From positions 1 to 23,688 of the IMG/VR virus record IMGVR_UViG_3300005264_000188: a stretch of 23,688 bases of DNA; one strand, written 5' to 3'. The translations under genes were made by a program, and so were the position numbers. The DNA is from a virus. Below, piece after piece: positions 3 through 11,828 of this stretch (its first letter is position 1; every line of letters starts with the position of its first letter). The notes under the pieces were generated by a model. It did no database searches, was not told the origin of the DNA, and was given only the letters and a program-made list of their open reading frames with translations.

Positions 3-641
3 ATAGCAAAAGATATCGACGATGATCTTATTGCAGCATTTAAAGCAAAAGTATTAAAACGAATTAAATCTGAAGTAGGTATTAGTGTTGACTCAGAAGA
101 AGAAACGGAAGGTGAAGAAGAGATCGATGATGAAAACAAAAATGCTGAAGAGAACAAAGAAGATGGTGATGAGACTGAAGATGAAGAGTCAGAAGGAGTA
201 GAAGAAGATTCTAGAGAAGAAGATGAATCCGAAGAAGAGACAGACGAATCTGGAGAGGAATCTGAAGAAAGTGAAGGTGACGATGATGAAGACGTAGAGG
301 AAGATCTAGACTTACCTAAAGAAGACGAATTCGTTATTAAAATCGCAAAAGAAAACGATTTAGAAATTAACGATGTTTTAAGTTTGTGGAATAAAGCAAA
401 AAAAGAATCTTCAATTCAAGTTGATTTGAAATTAATTAAGAAAATCAATAATTTAATTTCAAAATGGCTTAAAACGGATAAAGAAATGTATAAAGATGAA
501 ATAATGAACATATTTAAAATCAATGAAAATATATTTAATGTTAATAACTCTTTTATTGAGTTAATTAAAGAAAATTTTATAGAAAAACAACACATTAAAA
601 CCTTTGATAGATTATATAGTGAATTTCATGAAAACCTTTAA
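3..641 (+). CDS. C-terminal part of an acidic protein (5' end outside window)
   Basis: The frame is open from the first bases to the TAA at 639-641 with no convincing start, so this is the 3' end of a gene beginning upstream. The visible part is about 212 residues. Roughly residues 30-110 are almost entirely Glu/Asp with some Ser, including runs such as EEETEGEEEIDDE, so that part is very acidic and probably disordered. About 100 residues of ordinary Lys/Ile/Asn-rich, probably helical sequence follow, ending in EFHENL. I do not recognise the family. Acidic low-complexity regions occur in T4-like scaffold and core proteins, but nothing here proves that role. The end overlaps the start of the next gene by 14 bases, so the two are probably translated together. 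Confidence 0.75.
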   Translation: MAKDIDDDLIAAFKAKVLKRIKSEVGISVDSEEETEGEEEIDDENKNAEENKEDGDETEDEESEGVEEDSREEDESEEETDESGEESEESEGDDDEDVEEDLDLPKEDEFVIKIAKENDLEINDVLSLWNKAKKESSIQVDLKLIKKINNLISKWLKTDKEMYKDEIMNIFKINENIFNVNNSFIELIKENFIEKQHIKTFDRLYSEFHENL

Positions 642-1410
642 GCAACATCTTCAAGAAATGTCATGGGATATGTCAGAACTTGAACCTCGTGACAATGCTC
701 CTATAAGTACTCATGACGTATCTCAAATGAAACTTAAAGGAACTGAAGATGTTTATTACGTTAAGTTTTCTGATAAGGATTTATATGATGACCTTTCTGA
801 CGCCAGTATTCATCCTATTATAGAATATTTAGCATATAAAATCTATAAGTTATATAAGTTGTCTGTTCCTGAAGTGGATCTTGTGACTGATAACGGTCGT
901 ATAGGTCTAGCCTCAAAAGCAACTAAAGGAAAACCCGTTAGTCATTCAAATCTTTTGAAAATTAAAAATATTGCAGACTTTTTTACTGTAAGTGCATTCA
1001 TTGCCAACTGGGACGTACTTGGAACTGGATTTGAAGCGGGCAATATTCTTGTAGATAATGGTAAAGCAACTTTAATCGATCCAGGGGGCTCTCTTACATT
1101 TAGAGCACAAGGAGCTCGAAAAGGATCAATGTTTAGTAATAATGTTGGAGAGGTTCAAACTCTTCAAGATCCTTCTATGAGTCAAGCAGCAGATGTGTTC
1201 AGGAAAGTAGATGTAACAAAGAGCATGAAGTCTTTCCTTAAAGTTCCTTGGAGTAAAATTAAGTCACTTTTAGACCAAGAAGATAAATATATAAGAAGTG
1301 TTATTGATTTAAATCTACTTAAAGCGTGGCAAAAAGAAATTAAGATCATAACATTAACCTTAAAGGAACGACATAAATCATTAACAGAAATTATTAAAAA
1401 AATAATTTGA
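628..1410 (+). CDS. Kinase-like (HipA/PI3K-like loop) protein with T4-type capsid-targeting N-terminus
   Basis: 260 aa from ATG 628. A TTG at 604 is in frame, but the ATG gives an N-terminus of known type. MKTFKQHLQE closely matches the T4 capsid-targeting sequence of internal proteins and Alt (MKTYQEFIAE, cut after an L/I-x-E motif by the gp21 protease); here L-Q-E would be the cleavage site. In the middle, around residues 125-165, the motif NWDVLGTGFEAGN is followed by a short strand, IDPGG and then FRAQG. This resembles the catalytic loop (D...N) and metal-binding Asp of protein-kinase-fold enzymes such as HipA-like and PI3/4-kinase-like domains; similar NWD...IDxGG...FRAQG motifs occur in phage head-associated proteins. 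Inference: a head-packaged, possibly injected kinase-like protein, analogous in logic to T4 Alt. No clear SD is visible; translation may be coupled to the upstream gene. Family assignment is by motif only. Confidence 0.6.
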   Translation: MKTFKQHLQEMSWDMSELEPRDNAPISTHDVSQMKLKGTEDVYYVKFSDKDLYDDLSDASIHPIIEYLAYKIYKLYKLSVPEVDLVTDNGRIGLASKATKGKPVSHSNLLKIKNIADFFTVSAFIANWDVLGTGFEAGNILVDNGKATLIDPGGSLTFRAQGARKGSMFSNNVGEVQTLQDPSMSQAADVFRKVDVTKSMKSFLKVPWSKIKSLLDQEDKYIRSVIDLNLLKAWQKEIKIITLTLKERHKSLTEIIKKII

Positions 1411-3159: not shown

Positions 3160-3257
3160 TTAATAAATAGTATTAAGGAAGTAATCTGAAAAGCGCGAAC
3201 TTTTCAGAAACAGTCTAAGGTGACAAACCGCTGTCCTTCCTCTAATCTATTTATTAA
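3160..3257 (+). other. Structured leader of the homing endonuclease, sequestering its ribosome binding site
   Basis: TTAATAAATAG at 3160-3170 pairs perfectly with CTATTTATTAA at 3247-3257, which touches the AAGGTG ribosome binding site (3256-3261). Inside this stem lie further pairings: AGGAAG 3176-3181 with CTTCCT 3236-3241, a hairpin CTGAAAAG/CTTTTCAG at 3186-3207 with a CGCGAA loop, and ACAG 3210-3213 with CTGT 3231-3234. RNA started at the late promoter would lack the outer left arm but keep the inner hairpins. Confidence 0.6.
3161..3169 (+). promoter_or_regulatory. T4-like late promoter (TAATAAATA) before the homing endonuclease
   Basis: TAATAAATA at 3161-3169, a variant of the T4 late element TATAAATA. 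The same nine-base form recurs at 6845 and 11832. It lies 10 bp after the clamp stop codon and overlaps the left arm of an inverted repeat whose right arm lies at the endonuclease ribosome binding site. Confidence 0.6.
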
Positions 3258-3267
3258 GGTGAAGTCT

Positions 3268-4209
3268 ATGAGTAAAAAATTATCATATACTTATGTAAAA
3301 AATTATTTTAAAAGTCAAGGGTGTAAGTTGCTTGAAGATGTATATATAAATTCTAGAACTAAAATGAGGTATAAGTGTTCTTGTGGTAATAAAAGTCATA
3401 TAACATTTGGTAATTTTCAAAAAGGTCATAGATGTAAAAAATGTGGAGAAATAAGAAAAGCAGATAATAAAAGATTATCATATAAATACGTCGAGGAATA
3501 CTTTAAGAATCAAGGGTGTAAATTAATATCTAAAACGTATAAAAATAATTCTGAAAAATTAAAATTTATATGTAATTGTGGTAATCCCAATGTAGAAGAA
3601 GTAAGTTTTAACGCCTTTAAAAAAGGATCTCGTTGTAATAAATGTAAAATTATACGTCAATCTGAAAAAGTTAAATTATCTTATGAAGATGTTAAAGAGT
3701 ATTTTAAGTCTCAAAGATGTTTGTTGATATCGAAATCATATAAAGGTATTAATGAAAAGTTAAAATTTATATGTAATTGTGGTAATCCTAACATAGAAGA
3801 AATAACTTTTAATCATTTTAAACATCACTATCAAAGGTGTTCGAAATGTGGTTTAGAAAAAAGAAAAAAAACTCTAAGAATTAATAATGAAAAAAACGGT
3901 ATATGGACGCCTTTAGAAGATTTAAATAATTTTGAATTGTATAGAAGAAATGTTCATAGTTTAAGTAATTTGAATTACAGAAAACATAAAGACGTAATAA
4001 ATCCTTTAAATTTACCTAGAGGTCGTAATAAGTATCATTTAGATCATAAGTTTAGTGTTTTTGAAGGTTTTAAGAATAATATACCACCTTATATCATTGC
4101 AAACCTTTATAATTTGCAAATGTTAAGTGAAAATGAAAATTGTGTTAAACATGTATCATGTTCAATAACTAAAAAAGAATTAATGAATAAATTTTTTAAA
4201 GGAATTTAA
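3268..4209 (+). CDS. Free-standing HNH homing endonuclease with three zinc-ribbon (DUF723-like) repeats
   Basis: 313 aa from ATG 3268 with AAGGTG six bases upstream; the in-frame GTG at 3220 lies inside the structured leader. The first ~190 residues are three copies of a ~60-residue module: LSYxxVKxYFKSQGCxLxSKxYK, then CxCGN and RCxKC, i.e. a four-Cys zinc ribbon with a helical lead, like DUF723 DNA-binding modules. The C-terminus carries an HNH-type nuclease: YHLDHKFSVFEGF, then IPPYIIANLYNLQML and EN. The gene sits in the usually tight 45-44 interval and its stop abuts the clamp loader ATG, typical of an intergenic homing endonuclease in T4-like phages. It would cut the cognate site in phages lacking it. 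A late promoter and a sequestering hairpin control it, as in T4 I-TevI and mobE. Confidence 0.85.
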   Translation: MSKKLSYTYVKNYFKSQGCKLLEDVYINSRTKMRYKCSCGNKSHITFGNFQKGHRCKKCGEIRKADNKRLSYKYVEEYFKNQGCKLISKTYKNNSEKLKFICNCGNPNVEEVSFNAFKKGSRCNKCKIIRQSEKVKLSYEDVKEYFKSQRCLLISKSYKGINEKLKFICNCGNPNIEEITFNHFKHHYQRCSKCGLEKRKKTLRINNEKNGIWTPLEDLNNFELYRRNVHSLSNLNYRKHKDVINPLNLPRGRNKYHLDHKFSVFEGFKNNIPPYIIANLYNLQMLSENENCVKHVSCSITKKELMNKFFKGI

Positions 4210-6831: not shown

Positions 6832-6891
6832 TTTTATTTCTCCTTAATAAATACTTGTAACTATGAATTAACTATTAAGGAGAAATAAAAT
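6831..6891 (+). other. Perfect 19-bp inverted repeat hiding the ribosome binding site and start of the next gene
   Basis: ATTTTATTTCTCCTTAATA at 6831-6849 is exactly complementary to 6873-6891, with a 23-base loop. The right arm holds AAGGAG and the first two bases of the ATG at 6890. The late element TAATAAATA (6845-6853) straddles the left arm and loop, so late transcripts would start inside the loop and lack the left arm. Confidence 0.9.
6845..6853 (+). promoter_or_regulatory. T4-like late promoter (TAATAAATA)
   Basis: TAATAAATA 37 bp before the start of the small late protein gene. Its placement within the hairpin copies the arrangement at T4 gene e and soc, which supports it as a functional late promoter. 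Confidence 0.75.
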
Positions 6892-7126
6892 GAAAACTTT
6901 ATTTGAAACGTATTTAACAGAAAAAAAAGAAAATAATGAAAATATTAAAGTATATTTAAAAGCAACACAAACAATTCCAGATCGTTATAGTAAAGAAACT
7001 AAAATAAATAATTTAATGCTGTCTGGTAAAATTAAAGATGTGGACTCTCATAATCTACTTCTAGAAAATCAAGAATGTTTAATCCCTTACAGTAGTATAT
7101 TATCAATTAAACCAGATAGAGGTTAA
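6890..7126 (+). CDS. Small late protein with capsid-targeting-like N-terminus
   Basis: 78 aa. It begins MKTLFETYLTE, very like T4 internal-protein targeting sequences (MKTYQEFIAE), with L-T-E as the presumed gp21-type cleavage site. The mature part of ~67 residues is KKENNENIKVYLKATQTI..., later NNLMLSGKIKDVDSHNLLLENQECLIPYSSILSIKP, reminiscent of a small Sm/beta-barrel-like fold, but not assignable. The late promoter and RBS-hiding hairpin upstream indicate strictly late expression, as expected for a head internal protein. This late gene is set among early DNA-metabolism genes. Confidence 0.75.
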   Translation: MKTLFETYLTEKKENNENIKVYLKATQTIPDRYSKETKINNLMLSGKIKDVDSHNLLLENQECLIPYSSILSIKPDRG

Positions 7127-8814: not shown

Positions 8815-9037
8815 TTTTAAACAAGGAAATAATGTTAAAATTCTTAAAGGTTATTATGAGGATTGTACCGGAATTATTAAACATATTTGGTACAGTCAAC
8901 AACATGTAGGTCTTATAGCTGACATATTTTTAGATGATATTTTTACATCAAATAATCAAAATAAAGTGATTTCACAATATTTAGATAATTTAAAAATAAT
9001 TAAAAAAATGAATAGAAATGGAGCAAATAAAGAATGA
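8804..9037 (+). CDS. Small KOW/SH3-like hypothetical protein
   Basis: 77 aa, overlapping the previous gene by 11 bases and the polymerase N-piece by 4 (ATGA). FKQGNNVKILKGYYEDCTGIIKHIWYSQQHVGLIADI has the look of a KOW-type small beta-barrel (V-x-I-x-x-G-x-x-x-x-x-G-x-I), as in several short phage proteins. The resemblance is general and no function is proposed. Confidence 0.65.
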   Translation: MKHNFKQGNNVKILKGYYEDCTGIIKHIWYSQQHVGLIADIFLDDIFTSNNQNKVISQYLDNLKIIKKMNRNGANKE

Positions 9038-9423
9038 AACCTTTTTATACTAGTGTTACCTTAAAAAAGAATATAATAACAGAATATTGGATAGATGAAA
9101 ATGGAAAAAGAAAAAAAACTACTTCTAAATTCAGACCTTCTCTTGCAATAGAAACAAGTAAAAAAACTCCTTATAAAAACATATTTGAACAAAATTTAGG
9201 TCTTATAGAATTTGATTCGTGCTTAGACATGTATACTTGGAAAAAAGAAAATGGAAAATATACTAACATTTATAATGATGTTGGACCAGTCTATGAGTAC
9301 ATATCTAAGAAATACCCCGATTCACTAAAACCAGACTTTACGAAAATTAAAATATTTAATATCGATATTGAGTGCGTTAGTGGTCCTGATCCAAATAAAA
9401 AAGTAAAAATACGAAAAAAATAA
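9034..9423 (+). CDS. 43: DNA polymerase, N-terminal piece ending just after Exo I (T4 gp43-like)
   Basis: 129 aa. It starts MKPFYTSVTLKKNIITEYWIDENGK, matching the T4 gp43 opening (MKEFYISIETVGNN...RYIDENGK), and continues with SKFRPSLAIE and YKNIFEQN as in gp43. It reaches the 3'-5' exonuclease motif Exo I (FNIDIEC, catalytic Asp111 and Glu113). The last 16 residues, from Cys114 (CVSGPDPNKKVKIRKK), no longer read as polymerase but like the first block of an intein (C-V-S-G..., V-K-I-R-K). TAA stops at 9421. T4 gp43 continues without a break here. GGAG lies about 14 bases before the ATG, and the start overlaps the previous stop. Alone it can hold only part of the N-terminal and exonuclease domains. 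Confidence 0.88.
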   Translation: MKPFYTSVTLKKNIITEYWIDENGKRKKTTSKFRPSLAIETSKKTPYKNIFEQNLGLIEFDSCLDMYTWKKENGKYTNIYNDVGPVYEYISKKYPDSLKPDFTKIKIFNIDIECVSGPDPNKKVKIRKK

Positions 9424-9608
9424 TATTGATACAGAGATTAATTAATATTTTATAATCAAGTGTAGAATATAACCTCACTATAAAACAATATAAATTATAA
9501 AAAATTATGAATGAAGACACTGTAACTATCGGCGAATTTATTTCTAATTACGATAAAAACGAATACGAAATTTTTGATGAAGAAACAAATGAGTGGGTTA
9601 ATTACAAC
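9373..9608 (+). other. Intein-like remnant splitting the DNA polymerase gene
   Basis: Codons 9373-9420 encode 16 residues starting with Cys (CVSGPDPNKKVKIRKK). After 86 bases with stops in all three forward frames, codons 9510-9608 encode NEDTVTIGEFISNYDKNEYE and then IFDEETNEWVNYN. Placed together they resemble the N-terminal region of phage inteins (C...VKIRnk.tG...vtIgeF...YEI.....eWv). The splicing blocks further on (T-x-x-H, H-N-F, terminal HN plus Cys/Ser/Thr) are absent; polymerase sequence resumes at FPKPDQAKYPI. Identification is by pattern memory, not alignment. Confidence 0.5.
9424..9506 (+). other. 83-bp non-coding insert inside the polymerase gene
   Basis: Very AT-rich, with stops in all three forward frames and no ribosome binding site before the ATG at 9507. 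The last sense codon before it is AAA (9418-9420), and an AAA in the downstream frame (9501-9503) precedes ATT ATG. It has a poor sigma70-like element (TTGATA 9426, TATAAT 9451, 19-bp spacer). Confidence 0.6.
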
Positions 9609-11828
9609 CAATCATCATATGCAAAATCTTTCGGATTCCCAAAACCAGATCAAGCAAAATATCCGATCAATTCAATAACTGTTCAAGATTATTATTTAGA
9701 TGTTTTCTATGTATTTGCTTTTCAGGATTATAAAGTAAAAGATCATCGTGTAAAATATATTCAATGTAATGATGAATATGATTTATGTGAAAAATTTTTA
9801 AATTTCTTTCGTAGATCAAGACCGGATGTAATTACAGGATTTAATACTGAAGGGTTTGATATACCTTATATTATAAATCGATTTAAACAAATTTTACCAA
9901 AAGGTGAATATTATAAATTATCTCCAGTAGATGAAATAAAACCTATTCAATATAAAGGCGAAATTGTTGGTTATAATATTATAGGTATTGCTCATTTAGA
10001 TTTTTTGAAGATATATAAACAAATGAATCTAAAGAAATTAGAAACATACAGTCTTGAAAGTATTGCACAAGAAGAGTTGGGTGAAGGAAAGATCGATTTT
10101 AGAAAACAAGGTTATAAAAATCATTATGATTTATATAATAGAAACTTCGATTTATTTATAGATTATAATATCGTCGATGTTGAACTTGTTAGTAGAATTA
10201 ACAAGAAAAAAAGATTTATAGAAATCGTTTTATCTCAAGCGTATATGGCTAAAGTAAACATTGAAGACGCTTTAGGATCTGTTAAACCTTGGGATATTTA
10301 TATTTATAATGAACTAAAAAAAGAGGGAATTTTACCTTCACCTAAAATTAATTCTTTTCATACAGATATCCCTGGAGGTTATGTAAAAGAGCCAATACCA
10401 GGCATTCACGAATGGTTGATAGTAGCGGATATTGCAAGTAGTTATCCTAATAATATCATTAGTGCTAACTTAAGTCCAGAAACACACGTAGACAGGAATA
10501 ATCTTCCTAAAGAATTGTTGGAAATTCAAGATGAAGTAAAAAAACAATTTTGGGGCAATAAAGATGAAGAAAGTACTGGGTATATTGATATAGATGATAT
10601 GGAAGACGTAACTGAGTTATTGAAGAAACATAATCTTTGTATGAGTCCTAATGGAGAATTCTTTCGTTCTGACATTATTGGAATTTTTCCTAAAATCGTT
10701 TCTAAAGTCTATCAAGGTCGTAAAAATAAAAAGCATGAGATGAAAAAATATTGGAATGAAATGAAAAAATATCCCAAAGACAGTCGAGAATATAAAGACT
10801 TTGAAAGTAAATGGGCTGCAGCGGATAATGAACAATATGCATTAAAGATCTTCCTGAACAGTGGTTATGGCGTTTTTGCTAATCAATATTTTCGTTATAA
10901 TACACCACATATTTCATCTGCCGTAACTACTGGTGGACAAAGTGTTATTAAAGGTCCGGCAAAATATATTGAAGCAAAATTACCTAATGTTAAAATTCAA
11001 TATATTGACACTGATTCTATTTTTATAGACGTTTCAAATATTCTTAAAGATAGATTTAAAGAAAAGTATGATAAAATTTCAATGAAAGAAAAAAGAGAAT
11101 TCAGTATTGCAATATATAAAAAAGTAATCGATAAAATCATTAAAGAATTCTATCAAAATTACACTTCTACCTTAAATTTTCCTCAAAATACATTTAATAT
11201 GGACTTTGAGGTTATTTCAGATAAAACATTATTTATAGGTAAAAAAAGATATATTATGAATTTAGTATTTGATGATGGCGACTTTTACACTGAAGACAAT
11301 ACTAAACTTAAAATTAAAGGTGTTGAAATCAATCGTACAAATACACCAATGGTAGTAAGAGAAAAACTTAAAGAAATTGTAAAATTAATTATTAACACCC
11401 AAGATAATGATTTATGTCTGAAAATCGTTAACAATTTTCGTAAAGAATTTTTTAAGATGATATTTGAAAAAATATCTAAACCTACTGGAGTTAAAGGTAT
11501 AGATGAATATACTTTAGGTCAAAAAAGTATTCCTATTCATGTTAGAGCATCTAAGATTTATAATAAAGCCTTAAAAGATTTAAACTTAAACACACTTACA
11601 CCAATAATGAGCGGTGATAAGATACATTTTTGTTATATAAAAGAACCTAATATTTTTAATTCTAACGTTATTGCTTGTTCTGAAGAATTACCTAAGGAAA
11701 TTTCAAATAAAATTCAAATTGATTATGAAACTCAATTTGAAAAGGTTTTTATGAGTCCTGTAAAGATTATGTTTAAAGCATTAAATTGGCAAACTGAAAA
11801 AAGGGTAAATTTAGAATCGTTTTTTTAA
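9507..11828 (+). CDS. 43: DNA polymerase, main piece with exonuclease and polymerase motifs (T4 gp43-like)
   Basis: 773 aa. Residues 2-34 look intein-derived; polymerase begins near residue 44 (FPKPDQAKYPINSITVQD, matching T4 FPDPMKAEYEIDAITHYD). Exo II GFNTEGFDIPYIINR starts at 111, Exo III YNIVD at 220-224. Polymerase motif A is VADIASSYPNNI (Asp308), motif B KIFLNSGYGVFAN (NSGYG 451-455), motif C YIDTDSIF (DTDS 501-504), and KKRY is present. The C-terminus NLESFF is a probable clamp-binding peptide, like the SLDFLFG end of gp43. All catalytic acids are present except Exo I, which is on the 129-aa piece, so full proofreading needs both proteins. There is no SD before ATG 9507, so how it is translated is unclear. 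Confidence 0.93.
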   Translation: MNEDTVTIGEFISNYDKNEYEIFDEETNEWVNYNQSSYAKSFGFPKPDQAKYPINSITVQDYYLDVFYVFAFQDYKVKDHRVKYIQCNDEYDLCEKFLNFFRRSRPDVITGFNTEGFDIPYIINRFKQILPKGEYYKLSPVDEIKPIQYKGEIVGYNIIGIAHLDFLKIYKQMNLKKLETYSLESIAQEELGEGKIDFRKQGYKNHYDLYNRNFDLFIDYNIVDVELVSRINKKKRFIEIVLSQAYMAKVNIEDALGSVKPWDIYIYNELKKEGILPSPKINSFHTDIPGGYVKEPIPGIHEWLIVADIASSYPNNIISANLSPETHVDRNNLPKELLEIQDEVKKQFWGNKDEESTGYIDIDDMEDVTELLKKHNLCMSPNGEFFRSDIIGIFPKIVSKVYQGRKNKKHEMKKYWNEMKKYPKDSREYKDFESKWAAADNEQYALKIFLNSGYGVFANQYFRYNTPHISSAVTTGGQSVIKGPAKYIEAKLPNVKIQYIDTDSIFIDVSNILKDRFKEKYDKISMKEKREFSIAIYKKVIDKIIKEFYQNYTSTLNFPQNTFNMDFEVISDKTLFIGKKRYIMNLVFDDGDFYTEDNTKLKIKGVEINRTNTPMVVREKLKEIVKLIINTQDNDLCLKIVNNFRKEFFKMIFEKISKPTGVKGIDEYTLGQKSIPIHVRASKIYNKALKDLNLNTLTPIMSGDKIHFCYIKEPNIFNSNVIACSEELPKEISNKIQIDYETQFEKVFMSPVKIMFKALNWQTEKRVNLESFF

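What the first reader, a model, noticed from the sequence alone, without database searches (positions are those of the whole stretch)
628..1410. Kinase-like protein with a capsid-targeting tag: candidate injected effector
MKTFKQHLQE mimics the T4 tag that sends internal proteins and the ADP-ribosyltransferase Alt into the head, including an L-x-E protease site. The body has a kinase-fold catalytic loop (NWD...N, IDPGG, FRAQG). If right, the phage injects a kinase-like enzyme at the moment of infection, replacing or adding to Alt-type host takeover.
Basis: partly seen in the sequence, partly recalled or inferred. Interest (0 to 1): 0.7.

Follow-up and report, generated by a model that had tools for sequence, protein, structure and literature searches.

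The report
Phage head-targeted HipA-like kinase effector
A gene in an uncultured T4-like virus of bacteria encodes an enzyme with the shape and active site of a kinase, carrying a short front-end tag that in phage T4 loads proteins into the virus head for injection; the same enzyme domain is built into virus-particle proteins of many unrelated phages, so it is probably a widespread, uncharacterised weapon delivered at the moment of infection.

Summary
ORF 628-1410 encodes 260 aa starting MKTFKQHLQE, matching T4's capsid-targeting sequence (CTS) at three of the four residues known to matter (F4, L8, E10; position 7 is His). The body is a kinase fold: AlphaFold models of this protein (pTM 0.81) and of its fused relatives (pTM 0.93) both match CtkA (Z about 16), then CotH, HipA and LepB. 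K46, E66, NWD129, N139 and D151 are invariant. Over 500 viral contigs encode the domain, and no Pfam, PHROG or NCBIfam model describes it. In most phages it is built into large virion-type proteins with ADP-ribosyltransferase, Mu F minor-head or Nudix domains. It stands alone only in one clade, in T4-type phages that carry the gp21 protease, and there with an N-terminal tag. The closest relative's genome has 18 proteins sharing that tag on unrelated bodies (0.1 expected), including ART-PolyVal and GNAT enzymes. Another relative lies directly before neck, sheath-stabiliser and terminase genes. Most likely this is a packaged, injected kinase that modifies host proteins. Packaging, cleavage, activity and substrate are inferred, not shown. 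It is a new variant of known kinds; the tag offers a way to list injected arsenals.

The parts
628..1410 (+). CDS, 260 aa: stand-alone HipA/CtkA-fold kinase-like protein with N-terminal CTS-like tag
628..657 (+). CTS-like tag MKTFKQHLQE; predicted gp21-type cleavage after E10 (mature protein from M11)
   Evidence: T4 IPIII MKTYQEFIAE; functional residues 4, 7, 8, 10 from PMC9026906; homolog tags MKSFKSYLME, MKRFNQLVSE; 18 tagged ORFs in G001
706..714 (+). S27-T28-H29, invariant S-x-H of the stand-alone clade, at the place of the Gly-rich loop GSNPGG of fused members
763..765 (+). K46 (YYVK), predicted ATP-binding lysine
   Evidence: invariant in A3 and A4
823..825 (+). E66, predicted helix-C glutamate
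   Evidence: invariant
1006..1014 (+). N127-W128-D129, catalytic loop with predicted catalytic Asp
   Evidence: invariant
1042..1044 (+). N139, predicted Mg-binding Asn
   Evidence: invariant
1078..1089 (+). D151-P-G-G, equivalent of the DFG/DFD motif; predicted Mg-binding Asp
   Evidence: D151, G153, G154 invariant
1102..1119 (+). R159-A-Q-G-A-R164 (RAxGxR), family signature after the Mg loop
3..641 (+). C-terminal part of an acidic upstream protein, cut by the window edge; overlaps the kinase gene by 14 nt (probable translational coupling); identity unknown

Best explanation
A protein kinase of the HipA/CtkA fold is loaded into the phage head through an N-terminal capsid-targeting sequence. 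The tag is trimmed by the T4-type prohead protease after LQE during head maturation, and the kinase is then ejected with the DNA. In the new host it phosphorylates host proteins (takeover machinery or a first-response defence) before any phage gene is expressed. Shown by computation: the kinase fold, intact catalytic residues, the tag and its conservation, and association of the domain with virion proteins and ADP-ribosyltransferases across phages. Inferred: packaging, cleavage, injection, catalysis, and that the substrate is a host protein.
For: Fold: AlphaFold2 model (pTM 0.81) matches CtkA Z 16.0, CotH 14.2, HipA 13.0 and actin-fragmin kinase 12.0. The fused-domain model (pTM 0.93) gives CtkA 16.4, CotH 13.7, LepB 12.2, HipA 11.7. 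One fused member reaches HipA_C at E 7e-4. Catalytic residues are invariant in 11 stand-alone and 44 fused members. Tag: matches the T4 CTS. Relatives L008 and L009 keep MKxFxxxhxE. G001 has 18 tagged ORFs against 0.1 expected, with ART-PolyVal+GNAT, GNAT and ART-PolyVal bodies. Relatives in other T4-type genomes carry a different tag that is likewise repeated on unrelated ORFs there: 11 vs 1.4, 20 vs 2.4, 11 vs 2.4. The gp21 protease and gp23 are in all four contigs over 180 kb with the stand-alone form; gp21 is in 0 of 20 contigs with the fused form. Aligned gp23 N-termini: T4 has FLTE|A at its known E65 cleavage site; G001 has YLME in the corresponding region, as in the L008 tag. L009 is followed directly by gp14, gp15, a weak gp16-like ORF and gp17 genes. 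Fused members: 16 of 44 match ADPrib_exo_Tox, 14 Phage_Mu_F, 7 ART, 4 NUDIX; many match PHROG head-protein families.
Against: Residue 7, one of the two main targeting positions of the T4 CTS, is His here rather than Phe, Tyr or Leu. The window holds no gp21 or gp23 and no late promoter next to the gene (upstream sequence is cut off), and the downstream genes are replication genes. No virion proteomics was found for any member. A kinase fold does not prove protein phosphorylation: relatives of this fold also transfer AMP or glutamate, or phosphorylate lipids (established knowledge). Tag residues 1-13 are modelled with low confidence.
Confidence: 0.7

Rival explanations
1. Packaged and injected, but its main task is counter-defence: it modifies or occupies a host immune protein (restriction enzyme, toxin-antitoxin, NAD- or nucleotide-based defence) rather than taking over transcription or translation.
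For: T4 internal proteins with this tag are anti-defence: IPI blocks GmrSD, and IPIII is needed to infect ECOR17 (PMC9391042). Tagged sets vary in content between genomes, as expected of arms-race cargo.
Against: The catalytic site is intact and invariant over very diverse hosts, and the domain is repeatedly paired with ART domains, which suggests a broadly conserved target.
Confidence: 0.35
2. Packaged, but the enzyme is not a protein kinase: it is an atypical transferase of the kinase fold (AMPylase, glutamylase, lipid or small-molecule kinase).
For: The fold also houses SelO and SidJ (established knowledge), LepB and the PI3-kinases. The DFG equivalent is DPGG.
Against: The best structural matches (CtkA, CotH, HipA) are protein Ser/Thr kinases, and K, E, D, N and D keep the canonical order.
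Confidence: 0.2
3. Not packaged: an intracellular kinase expressed during infection (like T7 gp0.7), with the N-terminal MKTFKQHLQE being an ordinary helix.
For: The gene sits beside gp45, gp44 and gp62 replication genes in the window; no late promoter is visible.
Against: The tag is shared by unrelated proteins in the relatives' genomes, L009 lies in a neck and terminase operon, and the domain is fused to head proteins elsewhere.
Confidence: 0.15
4. A HipA-type toxin of a toxin-antitoxin module carried by the phage.
For: HipA fold.
Against: No HipB-like helix-turn-helix partner next door, and the relatives stand in virion-gene contexts.
Confidence: 0.03

Closest known systems
T4 internal proteins IPI/II/III and Alt (CTS-tagged, gp21-processed, injected)
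   Same: N-terminal tag of about 10 residues ending in hydrophobic-x-E; T4-type replisome genes in the window; gp21 and gp23 in relatives
   Different: The body is a kinase-fold enzyme; the IPs are small proteins, and Alt is an ADP-ribosyltransferase with a different tag
CtkA / HipA / CotH kinases (HipA-like kinase fold)
   Same: Overall fold (Z 13-16) and catalytic residues in the same order
   Different: 9-18% identity, no HipB partner, phage-encoded with a CTS or fused to virion proteins; DPGG motif, NWD loop
MuF polymorphic toxins (PMC5576092) and polyvalent proteins (PMC5512222)
   Same: The homologous domain is fused to Mu F, ART and Nudix domains in phage virion-type proteins; GNAT and ART-PolyVal enzymes co-occur as tagged neighbours in G001
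   Different: The kinase of polyvalent proteins described there (loss of the C-terminal subdomain, His..Asp active site) is another family; the MuF paper's text mentions no kinase
HipA-family kinase of 'Gratiaviridae' (PMC8008677)
   Same: HipA-like kinase encoded between portal and capsid genes
   Different: Its authors proposed a superinfection-exclusion role and thought an early role unlikely because it is expressed late; packaging would remove that objection. Homology of the two was not tested here
T7 gp0.7 kinase
   Same: Phage kinase that modifies host machinery
   Different: Made after entry, no tag, different kinase family

Membership tests
T4-type CTS proteins | Targeting residues 4 and 7 of the 10-residue CTS | tested here: inconclusive
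   F4 fits; residue 7 is His where T4 has Phe and relatives have Tyr or Leu
T4-type CTS proteins | Processing residues 8 (hydrophobic) and 10 (Glu) | tested here: met
   L8 and E10; same pattern in L008, L009 and T4
T4-type CTS proteins | Same tag on unrelated proteins of one genome | tested here: met
   Shown in relatives' genomes G001, G003, G004, G006. In the window itself only one near-match (6890-7126)
T4-type CTS proteins | S77 prohead protease gp21 in the genome | tested here: inconclusive
   Found in 4 of 4 long contigs of stand-alone relatives; the window is a fragment that lacks this region
T4-type CTS proteins | Protein present and cleaved in the virion | not testable with these tools
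   Needs virion mass spectrometry
HipA-like kinase fold (HipA/CtkA/CotH) | Fold | tested here: met
   Two independent AlphaFold models; Z 16 CtkA, about 14 CotH, 12-13 HipA
HipA-like kinase fold (HipA/CtkA/CotH) | ATP-binding Lys, catalytic Asp, Mg-binding Asn and Asp | tested here: met
   K46, D129, N139, D151 invariant; assignment by motif order, not by a residue-level structural superposition
HipA-like kinase fold (HipA/CtkA/CotH) | Phosphotransfer activity | not testable with these tools
   Needs a biochemical assay
HipBA toxin-antitoxin | HipB antitoxin gene alongside | tested here: not met
   Flanking ORFs have no HTH match
Kinase of polyvalent proteins (Pfam Kinase-PolyVal) | Match to the family model | tested here: not met
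   No such Pfam match in P0001, the 11 stand-alone or the 44 fused members
Alt-type ADP-ribosyltransferase | ART catalytic domain in this protein | tested here: not met
   No ART match in P0001; ART domains occur only in fused relatives

The most novel reading that the evidence does not exclude
One uncurated HipA-fold kinase family is a widespread virion cargo that phages load by interchangeable routes: fusion to Mu F or other head proteins, fusion to ADP-ribosyltransferase polyproteins, or, in T4-type phages, a detachable capsid-targeting tag. In T4-type phages the lineage-specific tag marks an entire injected arsenal (about 10-20 proteins per genome: kinases, ADP-ribosyltransferases, acetyltransferases, zeta-like kinases), so arsenals can be read directly from genome sequence.
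Probability: 0.55. Interest if true: 0.8.

Novelty: new variant of a known kind. Interest (0 to 1): 0.64.

Why it matters
Few injected phage enzymes are known, and the T4 example (Alt) is an ADP-ribosyltransferase. A packaged kinase would act on the host within the first moments of infection, before transcription, and would explain why kinase genes of some phages lie among late head genes. The tag statistics turn the question 'what do phages inject?' into something that can be listed from sequence and checked by one virion mass-spectrometry run. The domain family (over 500 viral contigs) has no model in Pfam, PHROGs or NCBIfam and could be named.

Tried and rejected
Direct family searches of the window protein gave nothing significant in Pfam or PHROGs, and phmmer against PDB gave nothing; the relationship only appeared through tblastn against phages and profile scans. 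Profile search of PDB by sequence gave only a weak LepB hit for the fused profile (E 0.025). A single-sequence scan of viral contigs found no relative; the profile scan found 505. Searching for closer kin of the window phage through its polymerase and the 12781 ORF found none, so gp21 could not be located in a near relative. HipBA toxin-antitoxin was rejected for lack of a partner gene. Membership in Kinase-PolyVal was rejected by Pfam. TATAAATA late-promoter sites in the window are not clearly above chance (11 vs 6.9 expected) and none lies upstream of the kinase within the window. Published virion proteomics for a fused member was sought (Mecenats66): none reported there. One search carries the warning that nothing rang; the same model did ring, which serves as its positive control.

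Full report
What was checked. The window is a 23,688-base viral record. ORF 628-1410 gives a 260-aa protein, MKTFKQHLQEMSWDMSELEP.... The surrounding genes are T4-type replication genes: gp45-like clamp, gp44 clamp loader, gp62, and a family B polymerase nearest to T4-type phages at 33-35% identity.

Is the tag more than chance? Work on T4 showed that the first 10 residues of IPIII suffice for entry into the head, with residues 4 and 7 mainly for targeting and 8 and 10 for processing (PMC9026906). The window protein has F4, H7, L8, E10; T4 IPIII has Y4, F7, I8, E10. A strict regular expression for such tags finds 1 hit in 93 ATG starts of the window (0.04 expected after shuffling residues 2-25). 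On T4 it returned only ipII, ipIII and gene 61.1, so it is specific, though it misses ipI and Alt.

Relatives. tblastn against phage records found the same domain inside proteins of about 730 to 3,300 aa, several annotated as ADP-ribosyltransferases. A profile scan of viral contigs found 505 relatives and a scan of bacterial and archaeal genomes 41. Eleven relatives in the first scan and one more in a second are free-standing proteins of about 270-310 aa (stop to stop) with an N-terminal tag-like helix. Stand-alone and fused profiles match at hhalign probability 100, E 5e-42. In a tree the 12 stand-alone proteins included (the window protein among them) form one group with support 0.97.

Fold. 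AlphaFold2 on the window protein with 10 relatives gave pTM 0.81. Foldseek's best match is the kinase CtkA. VIA-align gives CtkA Z 16.0 (221 residues, 3.3 A), CotH 14.2, HipA 13.0, actin-fragmin kinase 12.0, LepB 11.2 and Vps34 9.8. A model of the fused domain built from 36 other sequences (mean pLDDT 95.7, pTM 0.93) again puts CtkA and CotH first, then LepB and HipA. Against predicted viral structures the best named hits include a portal-protein fusion, ADP-ribosyltransferases and a Gordonia phage protein. K46, E66, N127-W128-D129, N139 and D151 are invariant in stand-alone and, at equivalent positions, fused members, so nothing marks it as a pseudokinase. Which residue does what is assigned by motif order and general knowledge of the fold.

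Is it a virion protein? Three lines. (a) Fusions: of 44 diverse fused proteins, 16 match ADPrib_exo_Tox, 14 Phage_Mu_F, 7 ART, 4 NUDIX and 2 Phage_min_cap2; with PHROGs, head-maturation protease, minor head and head-morphogenesis families dominate. (b) Context: in L009 the tagged kinase gene runs straight into genes for the T4 neck protein, gp15, a weak terminase small-subunit match and the terminase large subunit. (c) Tag arsenals: the closest relative, L008, lies in a 214-kb contig (G001) with gp21 and gp23. G001 has 18 ORFs beginning MISFKxFLxE or similar, 0.1 expected, with mostly unrelated bodies. L008 is last in a run of four adjacent genes with tag-like N-termini: an unknown protein, a GNAT, a protein with a sub-threshold ART match, and the kinase. 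Another tagged ORF is ART-PolyVal (E 3e-19) joined to a GNAT. G003, G004 and G006 use a different tag (MKLTxxxLKxLIxE-like), again on several unrelated ORFs (11, 20 and 11 hits; 1.4, 2.4 and 2.4 expected), including a zeta-toxin-like protein and five similar YHGT proteins in G004. Some hits are expected to be spurious.

Protease. The S77 protease occurs in all four contigs over 180 kb with the stand-alone form and in none of 20 contigs with the fused form. The records may be incomplete and related, so this is an association, not a proof. In the gp23 alignment T4 shows FLTE|A at E65 (known cleavage site, from general knowledge) and G001 shows YLME in the corresponding region, the same four residues as in the L008 tag. 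Three G001 tagged genes have TATAAATA 31-35 nt upstream of their start, as T4 late genes do.

Mechanism. Best reading: made late, drawn into the scaffold by the tag, trimmed by gp21, ejected with the DNA, then phosphorylating host proteins at once. Steps shown by computation: fold, intact site, tag, virion association of the family. Steps inferred: packaging of this very protein, cleavage, injection, activity, substrate. Counter-defence is a serious alternative for the purpose, because T4's own tagged proteins act against first-response defences (PMC9391042).

Relation to the literature. Polyvalent proteins include a kinase family, but a different one (PMC5512222). The MuF toxin paper's text mentions no kinase. 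A HipA-family kinase between portal and capsid genes was reported in gut phages and judged unlikely to act early because it is expressed late (PMC8008677); packaging would resolve that. That T4-like phages use the CTS to load varied proteins has been proposed before (PMC9026906, PMC3012670). In the open-access library searched here I found no report of a packaged HipA-fold kinase or of tag-based listing of arsenals; subscription papers were not searched.

Noticed in passing
window 6890-7126 (+): 78-aa ORF starting MKTLFETYLTE, a CTS-like tag one residue longer than usual, with an Sm/Hfq-like body (Pfam Hfq E 0.066, below cut-off): possible second injected protein.
   Followed up: partly
G001 (contig of L008; loci L194-L204): 18 ORFs share the MISFKxFLxE-type tag with unrelated bodies (ART-PolyVal+GNAT, GNAT, a protein with a kinase-like GSGAHSQVFE loop, unknowns); two tagged paralogs of about 300 aa sit next to a second gp23-type gene.
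   Followed up: partly
G004 (loci L215-L227), e.g. 254095-256475, 181405, 815, 171119: Several similar proteins starting MT(H/Q)LLRSLIRE(T/N)LLLEE followed by a YHGT motif suggesting ADP-ribosyltransferases (one scanned: no Pfam match), and a tagged zeta-toxin-like protein.
   Followed up: partly
T4 AF158101 18966-19130 (L242): T4 gene 61.1 (54 aa, hypothetical) starts MKTFKEFIKE, a near-perfect CTS; it lies beside 61.2 (adfA) in the anti-toxin region. It may be an unrecognised internal protein.
   Followed up: no
window 9034-9423 and 9507-11828 (+): The family B DNA polymerase is split into an N-terminal piece and the main body by a short gap.
   Followed up: no
window 3220-4209 (+): Protein with repeated zinc-ribbon-like segments and an HNH-like C-terminus between gp45 and gp44: probable homing endonuclease.
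   Followed up: no
window 3-641 (+): Very acidic upstream protein, cut by the window edge; composition recalls the acidic stretch of T4 core protein gp67, but no homology was found.
   Followed up: partly
G001, starts 114303, 144090, 146913: T4-type late promoter TATAAATA lies 31-35 nt upstream of three tagged genes.
   Followed up: partly
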